Below are positions 763-57,022 of a stretch of DNA of 64,000 nucleotides, in pieces. The notes under the pieces are model-generated. The model was not told where the DNA came from. It searched no databases and worked only from the letters and a program-made list of their open reading frames with translations. Location: NCBI RefSeq assembly GCF_917563915.1, contig NZ_CAKJTI010000004.1:186001-250000 (forward strand). Direction: 5' to 3'. Source of the stretch: Bacillus rhizoplanae (GTDB taxonomy: Bacteria; Bacillota; Bacilli; Bacillales; Bacillaceae_G). Position 1 is the first letter of the stretch. Every line of letters begins with the position of its first letter. The position numbers and the translations under genes were made by a program.

Positions 763-947
763 TGGTAATGTCTCCTAACCGTTATCAATGGAGGCACTCG
801 GCCTTGCTGTGGGTAGAAATTTCATTTCAACCTACCTTAGACGCATGTCGTCAGGAGCATGGCGTGAGGATGGGTTAGATGCCCAATGTTATTTATAAAA
901 ACTCTAGCTATGGAGTTGTGCATAAGGACGTTATAGCTAGGGTTTTT
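763..947 (+). ncRNA. candidate structured leader RNA upstream of galU
   Basis: This gap can fold into several nested helices. 775-780 (CTAACC) pairs with 873-878 (GGTTAG) as a closing stem. Inside it are AGGC/GCCT (792-795 with 801-804), GGTAG/CTACC (812-816 with 832-836) and ACGCATG/CATGGCGT (841-847 with 858-865). A terminator-like hairpin follows at 897-947 and then the galU ribosome binding site. The architecture (multi-branched domain, then terminator, then metabolic gene) is that of a cis-regulatory RNA, but I do not recognise the class. It could instead be a separate small RNA. No open reading frame with a ribosome binding site occupies the interval. Confidence 0.45.
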
Positions 948-7849: not shown

Positions 7850-8632
7850 ATGGACTTACAAGTACTAGTATCAACGATGCATCAAGATAACCATAGTCTA
7901 ATAGAAAGAATGAATATACAATCTGATGTAATTGTAGTTAATCAATGCGATCGAAATGAATTTGAGGAATTTATGTATAAGGGTTACAATGTACAATTTT
8001 TGTCATTTCCCGAACGTGGGGTTGGATTGAGCAGAAATAATGCTTTTATGCGTGCGACTGCAGATATTTGTATATTTGCAGATGATGATTTGACATACTG
8101 TGATAATTACAAAGAGATGATCCTAACGTCTTTCAAAAATAATCCAGATGCAGATATTATTGTATTTAATGTACCAAGTACCAATCCTGATAGACCATCC
8201 TATCAAATTAAAAAGAGTGGAAGAGTGAGATTGTTTAATTGTTTAAAATATGGAGCAGTAAGATTCGCAGTTAGGACAGATAAGGTGCGAAAGGCCAATA
8301 TACATTTTTCATTATTATTTGGTGGTGGAGCAAAGTATGGGTCAGGAGAAGATAGTTTATTCATATTTGAATGTATTAAAAAAGGATTAAAAGTCTATGC
8401 CGAACCCAAAGTAATTGGATACGTCAGTCAGGAAGACTCTTCATGGTTTACTGGTTATACAGATAAGTATTTTATTGATAAAGGTGCCCTTTATGCTTCT
8501 CTTTCTAAGAGATGGGCAAAATTGTTAATTTTTCAGTTTGCTTTAAGACATAGAAATATGTATAAAAACTATAAAACCTGGACCTCAGCACTTAAACTAA
8601 TGCTTAAAGGTATAAGAGAAATTAAAGGGTGA
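7850..8632 (+). CDS. glycosyltransferase (GT2-like)
   Basis: 260 residues from the ATG at 7850, which lies seven bases behind AAAGGAG; an upstream in-frame GTG at 7820 has no such site. The protein has a GT-A-like core: LVSTMHQDN, then GVGLSRNNA and FADDDLTY (the DDD metal/donor motif) near residue 80, and GGGAKYGSGEDSLF near 170, where the acidic residue is in the position of the catalytic base. No membrane segment is seen. The gene follows the ugd remnant directly, so that decay did not remove it. Its stop overlaps the next gene region. Donor and acceptor are unknown. Confidence 0.85.
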   Translation: MDLQVLVSTMHQDNHSLIERMNIQSDVIVVNQCDRNEFEEFMYKGYNVQFLSFPERGVGLSRNNAFMRATADICIFADDDLTYCDNYKEMILTSFKNNPDADIIVFNVPSTNPDRPSYQIKKSGRVRLFNCLKYGAVRFAVRTDKVRKANIHFSLLFGGGAKYGSGEDSLFIFECIKKGLKVYAEPKVIGYVSQEDSSWFTGYTDKYFIDKGALYASLSKRWAKLLIFQFALRHRNMYKNYKTWTSALKLMLKGIREIKG

Positions 8633-8634
8633 AA

Positions 8635-9603
8635 ATGATGAAACCTAAAATATCAATTATTGTACCTATATATATGGTAGAAAGATATATAGAAAAATGT
8701 GTTGATAGTTTAATCAACCAGACTTATAAGAATATTGAAATAATTCTTGTGGATGATGGGAGTCCTGATAATTGTCCTGATATTTGTGATAGTTATATAA
8801 AAAAAGATCCGCGTATCAGGACCATACATAAAGAAAATGGTGGTTTATCTGATGCTAGAAATGCTGGTTTGAGAGAAGCAATAGGTGAATATATCCTATT
8901 CGTTGATTCTGATGACTACATTGATAAGGACACATGCGAACGCTTTATGTCGGTTATAGGTATGAATAAGGCTGATATAGTCGTCGGAAATGCAAAAAGA
9001 ATAGAAGGCCGCAATGTATCGTTAATGAAGCATAGCAATTTTAAAGAAGGTCAAGTTGTAACTGGTGAGCAATATTTAATGGAAGAGTTAAGATCGGGCA
9101 CTATGTATATGGCTGCTTGGTTAAATTTATATAATAGAACTTTTTTATTAAAAAATAATCTGGAATTTAAGGTTGGGCTATTGCATGAGGATGAGCAATT
9201 TACACCAAGAGTGTTTTTAAAGGCAAAAAGAGTAATTAGTACAAATATTTTATTTTATAATTACTTAATTAGGGAAGGCTCAATTACGACAACAAAAAAC
9301 AAACTTAAAAATGCTGAGCATATAATGAAAATATGTAAAGAACTAGAACAAATCTATAGTGAAATTCAAAATAATGATTTAAGAAAATTATTGAACGATA
9401 ATTTAGTAAATAAATATCTTAACATATTTCAAGTTGCAGGCTTATATAAGGCCGAATACTCTTATTTAGTAGATAAGAGCTTTTTGAAAAGTAAGGCTTA
9501 TACCAGAAAAAATAAAGTAAGAGTTTTATTGTTTAGAATAAGTAAAAGGTTATATTTCCATTTGAATAGACTTATTAAAGAAATGAAGAGCTTATATTCA
9601 TAA
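8635..9603 (+). CDS. glycosyltransferase family 2
   Basis: About 322 residues. Classic GT2: ISIIVPIYMVERYIEKCVDS at the N-terminus, LVDDGSPDNC, NGGLSDARNAG and FVDSDDYI (DxD), then a HEDEQF block near residue 180 (catalytic base region). The start is either the ATG at 8635 or the one at 8638; both follow AAAGGGTG. An in-frame GTG at 8629 overlaps the previous stop and is less likely. It has no transmembrane segment and probably adds one sugar to the lipid-linked repeat unit on the inner membrane face. Confidence 0.92.
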   Translation: MMKPKISIIVPIYMVERYIEKCVDSLINQTYKNIEIILVDDGSPDNCPDICDSYIKKDPRIRTIHKENGGLSDARNAGLREAIGEYILFVDSDDYIDKDTCERFMSVIGMNKADIVVGNAKRIEGRNVSLMKHSNFKEGQVVTGEQYLMEELRSGTMYMAAWLNLYNRTFLLKNNLEFKVGLLHEDEQFTPRVFLKAKRVISTNILFYNYLIREGSITTTKNKLKNAEHIMKICKELEQIYSEIQNNDLRKLLNDNLVNKYLNIFQVAGLYKAEYSYLVDKSFLKSKAYTRKNKVRVLLFRISKRLYFHLNRLIKEMKSLYS

Positions 9604-9697
9604 TTAAAATTAATTAATAAATACTTCTCTTTAGGGTAATTTGTTTGGCAAACGTTCTGGATTTGGAGGAATATTGAAATATGAGAAGGATCTATCA

Positions 9698-10771
9698 ATG
9701 ATATTTTATTTCAGTTGGTTTATATTAGTTTTTTTATTGTTAGCATGTAAAAGGCAGAGAAATAAAATAAATGTGATTTTAGTATTTATTTTATTTACTT
9801 TAGTGTATGGAAGTAGAGATTATGGTGGTGTAGATGATTTAACATACATATCTGCATTTAATAATGCCATTAGTGGGAATATAGTTTATGGTATGGAAAA
9901 TTCATATTTAGTAATTTCAAGGATTCTTGGGGGATTAGGATTTAATTACAAAGCAGTATTTTTAGTATATGCAACGATATCGTTTACTTTTATGTATTTT
10001 GCCTATAAAAAATTATGTAATGACAAGTATGATTGGATTGTTGCTATGTTGGGATTTTTAGTTTTTGCATTTTTCCCAACTATAACGGTGATGCGTCAAT
10101 TTGCAGCTGCAGCGATCTTAACTTATGCTTTTACGCTTAAACTCAAAGGAAGAAATAAACTATCATTAGTTTTTATTGGACTAGCATCTTTAGTTCATGT
10201 GGGATCAGTAATCGGGTTTTTACTATTTCCTTTGTTTTCAATTAAATTCAAGCCATGGTCAAAAGTTATTATACCAATAATATGCTTTGGTATTGGTTAT
10301 TTTGGGCTTTCTAACCATTTTTTAAATTGGTTTCAGAAAATAATCCCAGGTAAATATTTGGGTTATCTGGGTAATGATGCCACGAGCCCTCATGTAGGTA
10401 TACTACATATCATTTTGTTTACAATCTATCTTTTTCAGTTTGTTTTAGGAAGCCTAAATAAGAATAATAGACTTTCAGATAGAACTATAGATTTTCTAGA
10501 ACGTGCACAGATGATATATTTTTCAATATTTTTTATTACTTTGTCCAGTGGTTGGGCAAGCCGTTTAAGTATTTACTTTATACTATTTGTCCCTTTTATT
10601 TTCACTACATTTATTTCAAGGTTCTCAATAGAAAGAGACAAGAAACTGTTATATCAAGTATGTTACGGAGCTTACGTACTCTTATTTATTTATCAAGTAT
10701 TAAATTTGCCAAGCTCTACAAATATGAGCGATCTTATACCTTACAACTGGTCATTTAACTTTCATAAATGA
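9698..10771 (+). CDS. EpsG/Wzy-like polysaccharide polymerase
   Basis: 357 residues, with about ten hydrophobic segments across the whole length, beginning MIFYFSWFILVFLLLACKRQ. The block YGSRDYGGVDDLTYISAF after the first two segments is the layout of EpsG-family proteins, which polymerise repeat units on the outer face. The ATG at 9698 is seven bases behind GAGAAGGA; TTG at 9641 and 9674 are possible but weaker. Next to the flippase gene, it forms a Wzx/Wzy pair. Primary sequence of these proteins is poorly conserved, so the call rests on topology, the N-terminal motif and position. Confidence 0.82.
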   Translation: MIFYFSWFILVFLLLACKRQRNKINVILVFILFTLVYGSRDYGGVDDLTYISAFNNAISGNIVYGMENSYLVISRILGGLGFNYKAVFLVYATISFTFMYFAYKKLCNDKYDWIVAMLGFLVFAFFPTITVMRQFAAAAILTYAFTLKLKGRNKLSLVFIGLASLVHVGSVIGFLLFPLFSIKFKPWSKVIIPIICFGIGYFGLSNHFLNWFQKIIPGKYLGYLGNDATSPHVGILHIILFTIYLFQFVLGSLNKNNRLSDRTIDFLERAQMIYFSIFFITLSSGWASRLSIYFILFVPFIFTTFISRFSIERDKKLLYQVCYGAYVLLFIYQVLNLPSSTNMSDLIPYNWSFNFHK

Positions 10772-32934: not shown

Positions 32935-34256
32935 CTAATTGACGGATACACCTAGTAATTCTTTCAACTCATTTGTTGATAGCTCTGTGATCCAATTTTC
33001 ACTTGTAATAATCGCATTATTGAGCGATTGTTTCCGCTCTAGCATTTCATCAATTTTTTCCTCAAGTGTTCCTGTTGTAATAAGTTTATGCACGTGAACA
33101 AACCGCTTTTGACCGATTCGATAAGCACGGTCTGTTGCTTGGTTTTCAACGGCAGGATTCCACCAGCGGTCGTAATGAATAACATGGTTGGCTGCAGTTA
33201 AGTTCAGGCCCGTTCCTCCTGCTTTTAAAGAGAGAAGGAAAATACCGTGTTGTCCGCTTTGGAACTGCTCAATCATTTTATCGCGTTCTTTCTTCGGTAC
33301 ACTGCCGTTTAAGAAGATGACGCGCTCTCCAAAATGTTCTTCTAACAATGTTTGCAGCATATTTCCCATTCGAATATATTGCGTGAAAATTAAACAGCTT
33401 TCCTGCTGATCACGTATGTTTTCCACGAGTTCTAATAATGTTTCTGTTTTCATAGAACGCTCAATTAAGTTTGCTGGTGTGTCTTCTTTTAAATAGAGAG
33501 CAGGATGATTACAAATTTGTTTTAGTTTATTTAACATGAGCAAAATAAATCCGCGGCGCTCAATCCCCGTTAATCCTTCTACATTCTTTAATGTATCTTG
33601 GACGAGTTGTTCATAGAGCGATGCTTGCTCTGCCGTTAATGGGCAGTATGCTTTTTGCTCTTGTTTATCTGGTAAGTTCAGGGCAACCGTCTTATCTTGC
33701 TTCGTACGGCGCAGTAAGAATGGTGCGATTAAACGCTGCACTTGCTGAATCTTTGTCTCATCGCGATCTTTTTCAATTGGTGAAACGAAGCGGCGCTGAA
33801 ACTGCGGCAAACTGCCAAGATAGCCGTGATTCAGAAAATCAAAAATAGACCATAGTTCTGATAGACGATTTTCCATCGGTGTTCCTGTTAAAGCGATTTT
33901 ATGATTCGCTCGTAAATTCCGAGCCGCACGCGATTGTTTTGTATGCGGGTTTTTTATATTTTGCGCTTCGTCAAGAATAATCGCATCCCACAGCTGTGTG
34001 TTTAGCTCTTCTTCATCAAGCTGTGCAAGCGCATAGGATGTAAGAATCACATCGGCATCTTGCAGGAAGACAGGCAAGTCATCTCCCTTTGCCCGGCTGC
34101 CACCGTAATGGAGCTTTACTTGTAAGCTCGGTGCAAAACGCTCAAATTCTTTTTGCCAGTTACCGAGGACTGATGTAGGCGCTACAATAAGCGCTGGTCC
34201 TGTTTTTAGGCTGTGTTCTTTTGTGTATAGTAAGTAAGTAATGGTTTGGATGCTTT
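32935..34256 (-). CDS. SNF2-family helicase, 3' exon (C-terminal part)
   Basis: Second exon of the gene begun at 38542. It resumes in the middle of the Walker A lysine codon and reads SIQTITYLLYTKEHSLKTGP, then APTSVLGNWQKEFERFAP. Then come the DExx box LDEAQNIKNP, LTGTPMEN (motif III), LSLKAGGTGLNLTAANHVIH (V) and the arginine-finger motif DRAYRIGQ (VI). The open reading frame recognisable by ATG alone starts only at 34077. Joined to the first exon it gives a 921-residue ATPase of the Swi2/Snf2 group seen in bacteria beside SWIM-domain proteins. Confidence 0.92.
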
Positions 34257-34304
34257 ATGACGATAGGTAAGTATTTGATACAATCTCCAACTTTTCCCCC
34301 GTCC

Positions 34305-34344
34305 CACACCGTGCATGCACCTTTCAATGCACACGGCGTTCCAT
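34305..34344 (-). ncRNA. group II intron domain V
   Basis: On the - strand, CCGTGTGCATT and GGTGCATGCACGG are paired around a GAAA tetraloop with a bulge, the form of the catalytic domain V. About 48 bases remain to the 3' splice site, enough for domain VI with its branch-point A. Confidence 0.85.
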
Positions 34345-34394
34345 CGATAGTGTTCTACTCACAGGTAGTTTTCTCTACATGTTTTCGTTGCTGG

Positions 34395-36317
34395 CTATGA
34401 ACTCACATTCATAGCTGCATTATAATCAGCAGTTTCTTTTGTTAATTGATATTGGAATTTCTCAATCTTCTTAACGGTTTTAGGTGAACCTTCTACATTT
34501 TTCTTTTCATGAATCATAAGGTGACAAGACTGACATACAGTAGCTAAATTTGGAACTTTATTTACTTCGTATAATGGTAACCACGGTTTTATATGATGAC
34601 AGTGTATATTCCATGGATAAAGGAATGAGTCACAACATCTGCATTTTCCTTTATCCCGATTGTAGGCGTATTCTCTGTTCATGATGTATTCAAAGTTGTA
34701 TCTTGGGTGCAGTCTTTTATGTTTCAGTTCGTATATCCGGCTCCATAAGGTTTCTTGAGAGTAGATAACATCTCGTTCTAGGAGAAATTTCTTTTGTCTT
34801 TTTGTTTCTAAGAACTTTCTTCCTTCTTCGGTGTAGCAGGATATACCTGTTTTCCATCGGTAAGGGATGCGAGCCTCGGTAAAAGAGAATTTTGTTAGTC
34901 CAATTTTGACTTCATCGGCTTCTAAGTAGAAAATTCTATCGTTCCTCCGTTGATGTCTGTTTGGGCGATTATTTGTTTCCTTAGCTGGAATCACATAGTT
35001 TTCCCAGCGTCTCTTTTGTCCTCCGCTTTGCAACTTACACCATTTTTTATACGCCACTTGATACAACTTCTGATCTTGTCGTTTCATAATATGAGCTGCT
35101 GAACTTGTTTTATAGAAATCAGCAATTCCTACAATCATGGAATTTACTTTTTCAAGTATTGCTATGTTTTCGCGTGGTTGTCGTAAGTTATGAATTTTAC
35201 GTATTTCTTTAGCTACTTGTCTTACTTTATTTTTCAGTCTTTTAATATCGGGAATGCTGTGACAACTTAATGATTTTGTTTTCTTACTATGGTTCTTCTC
35301 AACAAAGAATTCAAATCCTAGAAACTTTACTCGTTTTTTCCTTAAGTCTGTAATAATTGTTTTTTCGTTTGAAAGCTCAAGATTTAGTACATGTTTTAAA
35401 TATTTTCTGCTTGTCCTTAGGAGGGACTCGGCTTGGTCCATATCTTCACATAGAATAATCCAATCGTCTGCGTATCTAACGATTTGACATTTCTTATGTT
35501 TTTTATGAACACGTCTTAGTCCATCACTGTACGGATTAGAAACATCGTATCTAGCAGAATGATCTTGGAACTTTCTTGCTATCATCCAGTCGAAATTATT
35601 TAAGTATATATTCGCTAATAGAGGTGAAATAATTCCACCTTGCGGGGTTCCTAAGTGATTGTCTATTTGCATGTTATTTTCCATAACTCCTGCTTTTAGC
35701 ATTTTCTTGATAAGCATTAAAAAACGTTTATCTCTAATGCCAAGACTCCACATGATTTTTAGAAGTTTATTATGATCGATGTTATCGAAGTAGCCACGTA
35801 TATCTCCTTCTATAGCGATATACATTTTGCTTCTTTGTACTCTATCTAGAACCTCACGTTGAGCATGTTCAATACTTCGATTTGGTCTAAATCCAAAACT
35901 GTATTCGTAAAACTTTCCCTCTGCTATTGGCTCTAGAACGATTCTGGCTAGTTCTTGAATAATTCTATCTAGAATTGTAGGTATTCCGAGAGGGCGTTTC
36001 TTTCCATCAGTTTTTGGTATATATACTCTTCGAACTGGATTTGGATAATAGTTATCGATACAGCTTCTTATTAAATTGAGTAAAGTTTGCTCTGGTAGTT
36101 GCAAATAATTGTATATATCTTTGTTGTCTATTCCTTTTGTTTTACTACCTTTATTCGATTTTATGTTGTGAATCGCCGTAATAATAGTTTCCCGATTTTT
36201 CATTAGTTCAATCAAATTGTAGAAAGGTTCATTACCATCTTTAGATTTAGCATACATTTCATCCAATGTTCTATTTAACATGAATTCTGATTTGATTCTA
36301 CGAGCATCTACCTTCAC
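34395..36317 (-). CDS. ltrA: group II intron-encoded reverse transcriptase/maturase with HNH domain
   Basis: 640 residues. RT domain: VRRVYIPKTDGKKRPLGIPT (RT1-2), GDIRGYFDNIDHNKLL (RT3), GTPQGGIISPLLANIYL (RT4) and the catalytic RYADDWIILCED (RT5). Maturase X domain around 350-500 (KVNSMIVGIADFYK). C-terminal HNH endonuclease: CRCCDSF, HCHHIKPW, CQSCHLMIHEKKN. All motifs are intact, so splicing and retrohoming both look possible. Start is GTG at 36317, with AAGGAGG twelve bases upstream. It helps fold the intron RNA and carries out target-primed reverse transcription. Confidence 0.96.
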   Translation of the reverse strand: MKVDARRIKSEFMLNRTLDEMYAKSKDGNEPFYNLIELMKNRETIITAIHNIKSNKGSKTKGIDNKDIYNYLQLPEQTLLNLIRSCIDNYYPNPVRRVYIPKTDGKKRPLGIPTILDRIIQELARIVLEPIAEGKFYEYSFGFRPNRSIEHAQREVLDRVQRSKMYIAIEGDIRGYFDNIDHNKLLKIMWSLGIRDKRFLMLIKKMLKAGVMENNMQIDNHLGTPQGGIISPLLANIYLNNFDWMIARKFQDHSARYDVSNPYSDGLRRVHKKHKKCQIVRYADDWIILCEDMDQAESLLRTSRKYLKHVLNLELSNEKTIITDLRKKRVKFLGFEFFVEKNHSKKTKSLSCHSIPDIKRLKNKVRQVAKEIRKIHNLRQPRENIAILEKVNSMIVGIADFYKTSSAAHIMKRQDQKLYQVAYKKWCKLQSGGQKRRWENYVIPAKETNNRPNRHQRRNDRIFYLEADEVKIGLTKFSFTEARIPYRWKTGISCYTEEGRKFLETKRQKKFLLERDVIYSQETLWSRIYELKHKRLHPRYNFEYIMNREYAYNRDKGKCRCCDSFLYPWNIHCHHIKPWLPLYEVNKVPNLATVCQSCHLMIHEKKNVEGSPKTVKKIEKFQYQLTKETADYNAAMNVSS

Positions 36318-37098
36318 GTTGTTTAATAACCTCCTTGTTTGAGGAATAGCTGGTTATGCGTGAATTAACTATTTTACTTCCACATTCTTTTAAAGAAAGG
36401 GTCGTCTTACCGTAGAATCTGCTGATTAACATACACTACCGACTGGTGCCCTTCGCTAAGATGTTTTTCTGCTCCGTGACACTTCCGCAGAATTTCGTCT
36501 GCTTTATAGTCACATCAACGCCCATCTATTATTGCTACTATGACACCGCTGACTTTCAACTCGTTTCACCGTACCTTTATACTCCACGAATTGAATCTCA
36601 AACGTTCCATATCGTTTATCCCTTCTTTTGCATTCCTTAGGTGCCCTCTATACACCGGAGTTACTTCGCTCAAGTTAGATTGACCTTAACTTCTTGAGCC
36701 AACTTCGTCATTTAGGCAAAGTAACGAAGTAGCATTTGTATCTTAGGAAAATATACAAATATTTCACTCAGACCATCCTTTGACCTACGTATGATGGCTA
36801 TGGGTAACGGTGCGTGCATGACGAGGGTTCGTCTTCGCTCACCATAGAATGCTTTTAAGGACTACCGCCTCATATCAGGGAGTGTAGGCTCCCGTCAGTA
36901 GACGACTTCACCTGGCTCTCATACGACAAGTTATAAAGGTAATTTGTCGCATGCAGGAGTATTATAGATAGAACAGAAAGGTCATTTGTTCTAATTAGGA
37001 GTTTCACCTAATATTTCAACGATACAGTTAGAATAAGGCAAAACCTTATTCCCGTAATTTCGTGTTTTAAGCAACACTTATATACGAACGTTTCGCAC

Positions 37099-38542
37099 TG
37101 CCGAGTCCCATATCATCGGCTAGCAACGCGCCAAATCCTAACTCTCGTAAGTAGAGGAGCCACTCGACACCTTGCTGTTGGTATGGCCTTAATGTTGCTT
37201 GTAAGGAAGCCGGCACCTTGGCAGGTGGAATTTCCCCAATGTGCAGCAATCTTTCAAACAGTTTATCGTAATAATCATCGAATTCAAATTCCATATCTGC
37301 AAAAGGATTTTCTTCTTCGACTACTTCTGTTTCTGCACTTCGAAGCAACCGCTGCTGCACGACATCTTTCATCTCAAGGCCGTATCTGTCTGCTTTCTTC
37401 ATCAGCTTCTTCACTTCTTCGATAAACGCTGGATCAAGTCTCATCCATTGTCCATTTATGTGAATAAGACGTCTGTTTTGTTCAATGAGCGCAAGAAATT
37501 CAGCCTCTGATAAATCGATGCCGTTTGTAGAAATGCGCCAGTCAAAATCTACGAGCGTATTCATTCCAAAGAATGCCTGTCCTGTTTTCGCATTATGTTT
37601 CACTTGGACGCGCAGCTTTGGTTTATTTGCTTTTAAGTTTTGCCACCATGACGGCAGTAAAATATCAACACCGGCCGCTAGAAATTCATTGCTGGCTTCT
37701 GTTAAAAAGCGCCATGCTTCCGTTTCGTATAGCTCGCTCCGAAATACGTCTTCTTCTATTAACCAAGGTACGAGTTTGCCGAAACCTTCTTGCGTTTCGA
37801 TAATACGTTCTTCATGATTTATCCACCTTTTAGGCAGTGAATCGGGGCCTGTATATACGGATATTCGCTGATTGCCGCGTTTTGGTGTTAGTATGGTTTC
37901 CAGCTTCCACGTTTCAAAATCATTCTCTGGTTCTTGTAATCGAAGCCCAATTGCAAATGGTAGATCATCCTCGATATAGCCAATTTTACGGAGCCAATCG
38001 TTTTCATGAATAGCCGTTTCAAGTTGTCGTTTCGTAAAGTCATAATGCTCATATAAGCGCTTTGCATCCTCCCATGCATCGTCAGAGCGAGTATGATGCC
38101 GAAGTGTTTCATTAATCGCCTCTGAAAACAGCTTTTGCACCGTTTCATCCATTTCTTCTTCATGAGCGGTTTTCCAGGATGGATACTGGCCCCAGTGTTT
38201 GATGTCTGGAAGAAAGTTTCCTATTGTGTAAGCCTCCCAAGCCTGCTGAGCGACTGGCTTGAGTTCAGTAATGTTTGCGCTTGTTTGCAGCTTTGTAAAT
38301 GAATTTACTGGCTTTTTGGCGATATATTCAAATGCTTGAGTAGCGCTCAAAATGATACCGCTTCGCTGTTCATATGTTCCTTCTTGCAAAAATGTTCCGT
38401 AGAAAGAAGTGGAGTGCCATGTGAACGCATGTTGTTTCCAACTGCTTAGAGGCAAGCTGCTTCCAGTTTCATCCTCTGCCCAAAGAAACCAGTTTTCTTT
38501 CATTCGTTCGAGCCGAATGGTAATGTCAATTTGTGTTGTCAT
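37099..38542 (-). CDS. SNF2-family helicase, 5' exon (N-terminal part)
   Basis: First exon, 481 codons plus one base. It holds an N-terminal bacterial SNF2-associated region (about 1-430, with WWQNLKANKPKLRVQVK and FFGMNTLVDFDWRISTNG). The start of the ATPase domain follows: LRPYQQQGVEWLLYLRE (motif Q/I lead) and FGALLADDMGLG. It breaks off at the A of the Walker A lysine codon. Without splicing, translation runs ten codons into the intron and stops at 37067. ATG at 38542 is behind GGAAAGGAAAG and overlaps the SWIM gene by 17 bases. Confidence 0.92.
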
Positions 38543-40145
38543 GGATCAACTTTCCTTTCCGCAGTTCTTCTTGCAATGCTCGCAGCCGTGAGTGAGAGGA
38601 GGCAATCATTATAATGAAGTAATCCCATTCGTCTGTCCGTTTGAGCCTTTTGTAAAGTGTTCTCAGTTTTTTTAAGTAGCGAATTGCTCTGCGATATGAT
38701 TTTCGATTCTTTTCTTCAATGGCTTGCATTGCGGCATAATGATAGAGCGGAAGAGCAGCTTCTGGCGCTTCTTTTTCAATTTCTTTTAACGGCTCTTTTA
38801 ACAATTCAATTGCTTCAAATCCATATAGTAAATGAAGCTCCGTCCATGTGTGATATTGCTTTTTGGCAAGAACATATTGCTCGTAGCTTACGAAACTATA
38901 TGGCAATAATTCTTGAAGAATCATTTCATAGCCAGCTTGTTCATTCGTATGAGTGGCATATGTTTCATACATCATCATAAATAAACGGACAACATCTTTC
39001 ACAAAGTATGGATCGTGCTCGGCAGTTATCGTTTCTTTCACTCGCTTGTAAGTGAATGATAGCCATTGTTCTGCCCGCTCCCACTGCATGGAACTTAATA
39101 AATCTTCCAACCAGTCAAAGTAAAGTCCAACAACTTGTGGTGGCTGCGCTCTTAGTACATCCATTGCTTCTGCATCTTTTTTCTGTAGAAAGAGAAGGTG
39201 AGCGGATGCAAGTGCTTTTGATAAGGGATGAATCTTTGTTTCAATCCGCAGTTCTTCTTCTTGTATCCAAGTTTGCTCTGTGAAAAGCTCTCCCCATATG
39301 TGGCGATAAATAAAAAATCGCTCTTGTGTATAGGAAGAGGACGAGAAGAAGATTGTATGTAGCACTTCGGCAGTGTGCTGCAAAAATGGCGTAAGTACAT
39401 CTGGGAGCGGCTCAGCTTTAAAATCCCTTACAATGCTTTCTATTTTATCAACAAAGAGCCGTACAATATTGATTGGTTTATGATAAGAATAGAGTTCATC
39501 TTCTTCAAATATTTGTATTTCCTCAAGCAGCTTTTGAAAAGAAAAGAGAGCTGCACTAAGTTTAAACAGTTCGTGAACAGCAACAATGCGCGGTGCTTTT
39601 CGTTCAATTTTCACATAAAAATCCATGAAAATGTTCATCAGAAAATACATTTGTTTGTATGATAGGCGCTTTTGTTCTTTTGCGAATGTATCGTACTCAG
39701 TTTCAAAATAGGCAATCCAGCTTTTGTAATCTGTATCTTTAAAAGATGTTGTTTGCAACATTTGCCGTGCTGTGCGAATAGGAGGGAGAGTAGGTTTACC
39801 TTTCTTTTTAAATAAAGTTAGAATGTCTCCCACTTGCCCAAAGCTTGCAGCTGCATAGAGTAAGACTGCGAGCATGTGTTTACATTGCGTCGGTGAAAAG
39901 CAGTCACAATAACTTTCCGACACGTTTCGAATAGGGATGTTTACACTAAAAATATCTCCATCGTTTTCAACTGTCCCCGATAATGTGTATCCATCAAAAT
40001 CAACGTTATACACGAGGCCGCTACGGTAGAGCTGAAGTGCATCTGAAACTTGTTCTTTGTCAGATGCTTGCTGTGGATCCAGTCCTTTCAAAAATTCATT
40101 GGCGATTTCCATAATCTCATCTTTCGTAATTGAATGTTGCAGCAT
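38526..40145 (-). CDS. SWIM zinc-finger protein
   Basis: 539 residues. The N-terminal SWIM motif CDCFSPTQCKH (CxCx6CxH, about 80-90) binds zinc. The rest is largely alpha-helical and rich in Leu, Tyr and Glu, without recognised motifs. SWIM proteins of this kind are regularly encoded directly before a SNF2 ATPase, as here (17-base overlap), and the two probably act together on DNA or chromatin-like complexes. ATG behind GCGGAGG. The 150 bases upstream look like a promoter region. Confidence 0.9.
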   Translation of the reverse strand: MLQHSITKDEIMEIANEFLKGLDPQQASDKEQVSDALQLYRSGLVYNVDFDGYTLSGTVENDGDIFSVNIPIRNVSESYCDCFSPTQCKHMLAVLLYAAASFGQVGDILTLFKKKGKPTLPPIRTARQMLQTTSFKDTDYKSWIAYFETEYDTFAKEQKRLSYKQMYFLMNIFMDFYVKIERKAPRIVAVHELFKLSAALFSFQKLLEEIQIFEEDELYSYHKPINIVRLFVDKIESIVRDFKAEPLPDVLTPFLQHTAEVLHTIFFSSSSYTQERFFIYRHIWGELFTEQTWIQEEELRIETKIHPLSKALASAHLLFLQKKDAEAMDVLRAQPPQVVGLYFDWLEDLLSSMQWERAEQWLSFTYKRVKETITAEHDPYFVKDVVRLFMMMYETYATHTNEQAGYEMILQELLPYSFVSYEQYVLAKKQYHTWTELHLLYGFEAIELLKEPLKEIEKEAPEAALPLYHYAAMQAIEEKNRKSYRRAIRYLKKLRTLYKRLKRTDEWDYFIIMIASSHSRLRALQEELRKGKLIHDNTN

Positions 40146-56866: not shown

Positions 56867-56897
56867 AAGAGCGTAGTGAAAATTTAATCAGTGATAA

Positions 56898-56996
56898 ACT
56901 AGGGGTGCCCAAGAGAGCTGGGCTGAGAGGGAAGCGTGTTGAAGCTTCTTAACCCTTTGGACCTGATCTGGTTCGTACCAGCGGAGGGAAGTTAAC
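56898..56996 (+). promoter_or_regulatory. TPP riboswitch (thi box)
   Basis: All conserved parts are present in order: AGGGGTGCCC, GCTGAGAGG, ACCCTTTGGACCTGATCTGG, TTCGTACCAGCGGAGGGAAG. It binds thiamine pyrophosphate and controls thiC below. A terminator follows 27 bases later, so control is by early termination. Confidence 0.97.
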
Positions 56997-57022
56997 GGCT
57001 TTACATAACAATGCCTTATGTT

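What the first reader, a model, noticed from the sequence alone, without database searches (positions are those of the whole stretch)
34257..37098. Group II intron splits the Walker A lysine codon of a SNF2 ATPase
Seen: intron start GTGCG, domain V, maturase with all RT and HNH motifs, end AT. Exons join as GGC A|AA AGC, giving GLGKS and a continuous 921-residue frame. Most bacterial group II introns avoid conserved genes or sit in mobile DNA. Here ATPase function depends wholly on splicing; the unspliced product ends ten codons into the intron, without ATPase motifs.
Basis: partly seen in the sequence, partly recalled or inferred. Interest (0 to 1): 0.75.

Follow-up and report, generated by a model that had tools for sequence, protein, structure and literature searches.

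The report
RNA intron inside helicases' ATP-binding lysine
A self-splicing mobile RNA intron sits inside the codon for the key ATP-binding lysine of a bacterial helicase-like gene, and it belongs to a small intron lineage found at that same codon in several other, non-equivalent helicase genes, much as some protein introns (inteins) are.

Summary
A 2,842-nt group II intron (37098 to 34257, minus strand) with domain V/VI and D1-D4 matches and an intact maturase interrupts the Walker A Lys codon (A|AA) of a YwqA-type SNF2 ATPase; the exons encode 921 aa. All 19 genomes searched in the family of Ectobacillus panaciterrae carry this gene uninterrupted. The exon behind the intron is about 80% identical to three intron-less orthologues and shows no selective decay, so efficient splicing is likely, though not shown.

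The larger result lies outside the window. Five relatives of this intron occupy the same lysine codon in other SF2/SNF2-like genes, on chromosomes and plasmids, in four further gene families. The six form one clade in a 29-protein maturase tree (95/90). Their EBS2 guide faces the Met-Gly codons of motif I, and EBS2:IBS2 pairing follows the target across site classes (6 of 40,320 permutations as good; 6 of 5,040 without these six). I read this as an RNA-guided lineage specialised on P-loops, a counterpart of P-loop inteins. Group II introns in conserved genes, and a pair in remotely homologous helicases, are in print; my searches found no report of this lineage.

The parts
37099..38542 (-). Exon 1 of the YwqA-type SNF2 gene: DUF3670 region and the SNF2 domain up to DDMGLG plus the first base of the Lys codon
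   Evidence: Pfam PF12419 1.1e-35 and SNF2-rel_dom profile 1-29; 55-61% identical to three intron-less orthologues L037-L039
37107..37112 (-). IBS2 (TATGGG, positions -14 to -9; the Met-Gly codons of motif I)
   Evidence: 6 of 6 Watson-Crick pairs with EBS2
37099..37104 (-). IBS1 (TCGGCA, -6 to -1)
   Evidence: 5 of 6 pairs with EBS1, one C.U mismatch
34257..37098 (-). Group II intron, 2,842 nt, GTGCG...AT
   Evidence: Rfam RF02004 and RF00029; empty site in 19 of 19 homologues
36854..37006 (-). Part of domains I-IV matched by RF02004
   Evidence: 55.2 bits, E 2.2e-10
36799..36804 (-). EBS2 (CCCATA, intron positions 295-300)
   Evidence: pairing at this alignment region follows the target across site classes
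36713..36718 (-). Candidate EBS1 (TGCCTA, intron positions 381-386) in the loop of a 7-bp hairpin
   Evidence: weaker class-level support than EBS2 (742 of 40,320 permutations as good)
34395..36317 (-). Intron-encoded reverse transcriptase/maturase with HNH-like end, 640 aa, GTG start
   Evidence: Pfam RVT_1 and sub-threshold HNH, TIGR04416
34257..34341 (-). Domains V and VI
   Evidence: RF00029 57.6 bits, full model
32935..34256 (-). Exon 2: last two bases of the Lys codon, rest of SNF2 domain and Helicase_C
   Evidence: SNF2-rel_dom profile 32-289 6.1e-59, Helicase_C 1.6e-25; 79-80% identical to L037-L039

Best explanation
This is a mobile group II intron with its own maturase, living in the Walker A lysine codon of a YwqA-type SNF2 ATPase gene. 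The transcript would be made with the intron, the maturase translated from inside it would help the RNA fold and splice, and the joined mRNA would encode an intact GLGKS P-loop; without splicing only a 491-residue fragment is made. The excised RNA with its maturase recognises DNA by base pairing: EBS2 reads the Met-Gly codons of motif I (IBS2), EBS1 reads the bases up to and including the first base of the Lys codon (IBS1). These bases are constrained by the protein motif (Met has one codon, Gly is always GGN), so related landing sites exist in many SF2 ATPase genes, and the lineage has moved between them. Shown by sequence: anatomy, site, one-clade grouping, guide covariation, intact exons. 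Inferred: splicing, mobility, direction and number of moves, ATPase activity.
For: Anatomy. Exon 2 behind the intron: dN to outgroup L043 is 0.275, against 0.274 and 0.289 for two intron-less orthologues. Empty site 19 of 19. Six introns at the same codon: window DDMGLG|K, L001 DDMGLG|K, L002 YDMGMG|K, L027 GDMGTG|K, L030 and L031 GEMSTG|K. Host genes are not orthologous: exon-1 identities are 27% over a part (window/L001) or no significant match, except the L030/L031 pair at 48%. E. panaciterrae carries its intron in a SWIM-SNF2 gene while its own YwqA orthologue (L038) is uninterrupted. One clade 93/89 with 27 proteins and 95/90 with 29. EBS2:IBS2 at or above observed in 6 of 40,320 class permutations, 6 of 5,040 without the P-loop class; eight shifted control regions gave 4,039 to 40,302 of 40,320.
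Against: No RNA data. No close strain with or without the intron, so insertion could be too recent for exon decay to show. The window branch is somewhat longer than those of the intron-less genes in both exons (exon 2 dN 0.139-0.157 to L037-L039, against 0.104-0.130 among these three), and dS is saturated, so dN/dS could not be computed. EBS1 pairing is weaker: 742 of 40,320 permutations as good, 286 of 5,040 without the P-loop class. L030 pairs poorly with its own target (4 of 6 at EBS2). Three of six hosts (L027, L030, L031) are only weakly SNF2 by Pfam (Helicase_C or sub-threshold SNF2). The clade rests on six sequences, 95/90.
Confidence: 0.82

Rival explanations
1. The intron has inactivated the gene: it does not splice well enough, and the exons are still intact only because the insertion is young.
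For: No splicing evidence exists here; no sister strains could be compared (no genome held). The window branch is a little longer than its relatives in both exons.
Against: Exon 2 is not faster than intron-less orthologues against an outgroup (0.275 against 0.274 and 0.289); the ribozyme parts matched and the maturase are intact; the other five introns also sit between open exons that restore Lys.
Confidence: 0.12
2. The shared P-loop site is convergence: separate introns reached P-loops independently because such sequences are common, and their maturases group for other reasons.
For: Related introns at other sites also hit conserved motifs: Walker B of a TraG-like gene (L018) and of a DnaX-like gene (L020), RecA (L028), HU (L035), SSB (L064, L065), DUF3854 (L033, L034). 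The clade support is moderate (93/89 and 95/90).
Against: One change of site on the tree, 0 of 500 label shuffles as low, 96% of 200 bootstrap trees; the same exact codon and phase; EBS2 CYCAT at the same alignment position in all six.
Confidence: 0.12
3. The intron helps the host by making helicase expression conditional on splicing (a regulatory switch at the P-loop), as has been proposed for some inteins.
For: Only analogy: a review of inteins (PMC5874633, passages seen) raises regulation as an open question for P-loop inteins.
Against: No test here; absence of the intron from 19 of 19 family genomes fits a selfish element better.
Confidence: 0.05

Closest known systems
Class B (group IIB) introns of Bacillus and relatives, e.g. 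B.psf.I1 in pBpOF4-01 (PMC3261151, passages seen)
   Same: Firmicute hosts, RT/maturase, plasmid replication and helicase-like hosts. My L016 lies at the published B.psf.I1 coordinates and is 39% identical to the window maturase. The Niallia member L030 has a 51-nt extension beyond the RF00029 end, like the published 53-56-nt domain VII.
   Different: The window intron has no 3' extension and sits in a chromosomal-looking SNF2 gene at the P-loop. B.psf.I1 is in a primase gene. B.th.I5 is listed in a 'hypothetical protein with two helicase domains' (pXO1-08); its exact site was not examined.
Group IIA intron of Streptococcus phage phi-SgaBSJ31_rum in a DarB-like/SNF2 helicase gene and a near-identical bacterial intron in a remotely homologous helicase gene (PMC12350094, Results read in full)
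   Same: A group II intron in SNF2-type genes, with a probable move between remotely homologous helicases.
   Different: That intron is IIA and near-identical between two hosts; its position relative to the P-loop is not given in the text I read. Here maturases are 49-66% identical across five gene families and one exact codon.
recA group II intron of Geobacillus kaustophilus (Chee and Takami 2005; seen only as a reference in PMC4424553)
   Same: A group II intron in a conserved chromosomal gene of Bacillales.
   Different: Different gene and motif. L028 of this study (recA) may be of that kind; not compared.
Inteins at P-loops of DnaB, PcrA, UvrD and RecA/RadA (PMC5874633, passages seen); NCBIfam NF058636 'sll1366 family intein-prone helicase'
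   Same: Mobile self-removing element at the nucleotide-binding motif of helicases. The NF058636 model matches window exon 1 and runs only two positions past its last residue.
   Different: Inteins are removed from protein and home by a DNA endonuclease; this element is removed from RNA and is guided by RNA pairing. That inteins of the sll1366 family sit at this very lysine is my inference from the model's end, not checked.

Membership tests
Group II intron | Domain V/VI ribozyme core | tested here: met
   RF00029 57.6 bits, model 1-77 of 77
Group II intron | GUGYG 5' end, AY 3' end | tested here: met
   GTGCG...AT
Group II intron | EBS/IBS pairing with the 5' exon | tested here: met
   EBS2 6/6, EBS1 5/6; EBS2 covaries with target
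Group II intron | Intron-encoded RT/maturase | tested here: met
   TIGR04416 325 bits, cut-off 300; RVT_1
Group II intron | Self-splicing and retrohoming activity | not testable with these tools
   No RNA or mobility data
Class B / group IIB | Maturase groups with class B to the exclusion of other classes | tested here: inconclusive
   Related to L016 (published class B intron B.psf.I1), but the trees held no reference of classes A, C-F, ML or CL
Class B / group IIB | 3' extension (domain VII), present in some class B introns only | tested here: not met
   Exon 2 follows domain VI directly in the window. It is not a required feature; present in relative L030
YwqA-type SNF2 ATPase (host gene) | DUF3670 region, SNF2 and Helicase_C domains, collinear with intron-less orthologues | tested here: met
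   The name YwqA is recalled from Bacillus subtilis, not from a call
P-loop intein | In-frame protein insert with intein motifs | tested here: not met
   Frame stops ten codons into the insert; the insert is a ribozyme with an RT gene

The most novel reading that the evidence does not exclude
A group II intron lineage has become a P-loop specialist: its RNA guides read the codon-constrained Met-Gly-x-Gly-Lys sequence, so it can home into many non-orthologous SF2 ATPase genes, on chromosomes and plasmids, always between the first and second base of the catalytic lysine codon. It would be the RNA-guided counterpart of P-loop inteins and would show that nucleotide-level codon constraint, not a protein-level property, suffices to draw homing elements to P-loops.
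Probability: 0.65. Interest if true: 0.68.

Novelty: new variant of a known kind. Interest (0 to 1): 0.55.

Why it matters
Why homing elements collect at P-loops and other catalytic motifs is posed as an open question for inteins (PMC5874633). A group II intron that homes by base pairing reaches the same motif by another mechanism, with the guide readable in the sequence, so the role of codon constraint can be tested directly. It also shows an intron lineage tracking a protein motif rather than a gene.

Tried and rejected
No genome is held for the window, so the organism, its intron copies and sister strains could not be examined. A notebook entry of mine says the window is not of the B. cereus group; the genomes behind that are unnamed, so I withdraw it. 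That entry's 'all sites phase 1' was also overtaken (exceptions L016, L056, L072).

Plasmids: no nucleotide match at 'near' sensitivity. By protein, 355 plasmid records matched at E up to 1e-60, 304 of them Enterococcus; the listed ones are about 34% identical. I fetched 12 of the 355 (H1-H12). Phages: 17 records, 2 fetched. Viral contigs: a maturase scan gave 2 distant hits and a junction pattern gave none. Genome scans with the maturase or alignment A1, at strict E-values: 3 of 397, 2 of 299, 6 of 398, 1 of 29, 1 of 15 and 3 of 398 genomes (G001 is counted in three of these, and G002, G253, G325, G523 recur); no further P-loop case. Rows dropped before the trees: L006-L010, L019, L021-L026, L068, L071 and second RT copies in L030, L036, L057, because the match was partial or distant or the boundary unclear; L011-L015, L029, L061-L063, L066 and L069 repeat loci already used.

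In the permutation test I put L003 and L060 in one class because their maturases are close, although their exons differ; the EBS2 region was chosen from the window's own pairing, hence the repeat without the P-loop class and with shifted regions. Javan phage intron H66 was fetched and not used. dN/dS failed because dS is saturated.

Full report
1. What is there. On the minus strand, 37098 to 34257, is a group II intron of 2,842 nt. Rfam finds domains V-VI at its exact 3' end and a D1-D4 match near the 5' end. It begins GTGCG and ends AT. Inside is a 640-residue reverse transcriptase/maturase (RVT_1 8.3e-36; TIGR04416 above cut-off; HNH just under Pfam's cut-off). The flanking exons are open and together with the split codon give 921 residues. 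The split codon is A|AA, the lysine of DDMGLGKS. The Pfam SNF2 domain is divided there: profile 1-29 in exon 1 and 32-289 in exon 2. Unspliced translation stops ten codons into the intron.

2. Is it a real insertion in a living gene? All 19 genomes searched in the family of E. panaciterrae hold an uninterrupted homologue with 906-925-codon open frames, and all 19 show the same motif and an empty site. Exon 1 is 55-61% and exon 2 79-80% identical to the three intron-less orthologues L037-L039. Against the outgroup L043, exon 2 of the window has dN 0.275, two intron-less orthologues 0.274 and 0.289. The window lineage is slightly longer than the intron-less ones in both exons, not in exon 2 alone. 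This argues against decay, but a young insertion cannot be excluded, and dS is saturated.

3. Relatives. One scan of genome contigs with the maturase gave 10 loci; plasmid, phage and genome searches gave more. In E. panaciterrae (66% identical maturase) the intron sits at DDMGLG|K of a SWIM/SNF2_assoc gene. In pBpOF4-01 of A. pseudofirmus it is at YDMGMG|K of a SNF2-like gene. In plasmids of Niallia circulans and Planococcus lenghuensis it is at GEMSTG|K of an orthologous pair of helicase-like genes. In all six the split codon is A|AA. The hosts make five gene families: exon-1 identities are 27% over 183 residues (window/L001), 48% (L030/L031), and otherwise without significant full-length match; exon 2 of L027 and L031 is 29% identical over 466 residues. 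E. panaciterrae has its own intron-less YwqA orthologue (L038), so the nearest known relative of this intron lives in a different gene beside an empty orthologous site.

4. Tree. In a 27-protein maximum-likelihood tree the six P-loop introns are one side of a branch (93/89). With two more proteins it is 95/90, in 96% of 200 bootstrap trees, and 0 of 500 label shuffles need as few changes. The next branch, L032, has another target. Other relatives lie in or beside conserved motifs: DUF3854 (L033, L034), HU (L035), RecA (L028), SSB (L064, L065), TraG-like (L018, L073), DnaX-like (L020), RadC (L067) (gene names other than those annotated or 28 are my reading of the translated flanks). Sites of L004, L005, L017, L032, L036 and L057-L060 are less clear or of other kinds; L005 is in a tRNA-like region. 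So conserved-motif sites are common in this set, and the P-loop clade is the clearest case of several genes sharing one site.

5. Guides. EBS2 (intron 295-300, CCCATA) pairs 6/6 with IBS2 TATGGG, which is the Met-Gly part of motif I. The same alignment region reads CCCATG in L002 (target CATGGG), CTCATT in L031 (GATGAG), CCGAAT in L032 (GTTCGG) and GGACCT in L034 (AGGTCC). Own targets pair better than those of other site classes: 6 of 40,320 permutations are as good, 6 of 5,040 when the P-loop class is left out, while eight shifted control regions give 4,039-40,302 of 40,320. A candidate EBS1 in a hairpin loop (TGCCTA) pairs 5/6 with IBS1; its class-level signal is weak (742 of 40,320; 286 of 5,040 without the P-loop class). 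L030 pairs poorly (4/6) at EBS2. Only 3 of 122,252 other places in the window match the guides as well as the occupied site. All 19 empty orthologous sites keep 5 or 6 of 6 pairs with EBS2 and 4 to 6 with EBS1.

6. Mechanism. Inferred from established group II biology (recalled, and PMC4424553 passages): maturase-assisted splicing restores the mRNA; the excised RNA-protein particle reverse-splices into DNA that pairs with EBS1/EBS2 and copies itself. Because Met has one codon and the glycines start GG, the DNA under DMGxGK is constrained, which offers a recurrent landing site in SF2 genes. Splicing also leaves the motif whole, so the host tolerates it.

7. What is known. Group II introns in conserved genes are known (review PMC4424553, passages; it cites the G. 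kaustophilus recA intron). A phage IIA intron in a SNF2-type gene with a near-identical copy in a remotely homologous bacterial helicase is the closest precedent (PMC12350094, Results read). Class B introns in Bacillus plasmids, one of them in a gene with helicase domains, are tabulated in PMC3261151 (passages). Inteins at helicase P-loops are well known (PMC5874633, passages), and NCBI names a relative of this host family 'intein-prone'. I found no paper describing a group II lineage on P-loops.

8. Verdict. The intron itself is an ordinary kind of element. The shared, codon-exact P-loop site across five gene families in one clade is new to me and worth a test.

Noticed in passing
L030 (Niallia circulans plasmid NZ_CP053316.1), 4197-7108 and about 7995-10549: One helicase gene appears to carry two different group II introns: the P-loop one, with a 51-nt 3' extension like domain VII, and a second one with another RT after GTLFGGK.
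   Followed up: partly
window 37102-38542 (-): NCBIfam 'sll1366 family intein-prone helicase' (589 positions) matches exon 1 up to position 587, i.e. the model ends about at the Walker A lysine; intein and intron may share this hot spot.
   Followed up: no
loci: Of the relatives whose host frame I could read, 17 insert after the first base of a codon (phase 1); exceptions are L016 and L056 (phase 0) and L072 (phase 2). Some 3' ends were read by eye; no test was made.
   Followed up: partly
   Followed up: no
   Followed up: no
window 763-885 (+) and 56891-57006 (+): An epsC (EAR) RNA element and a TPP riboswitch.
   Followed up: no
window 38526-40145 (-): A SWIM zinc-finger protein (539 aa) directly upstream, overlapping the start of the SNF2 gene; probably one operon.
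   Followed up: no
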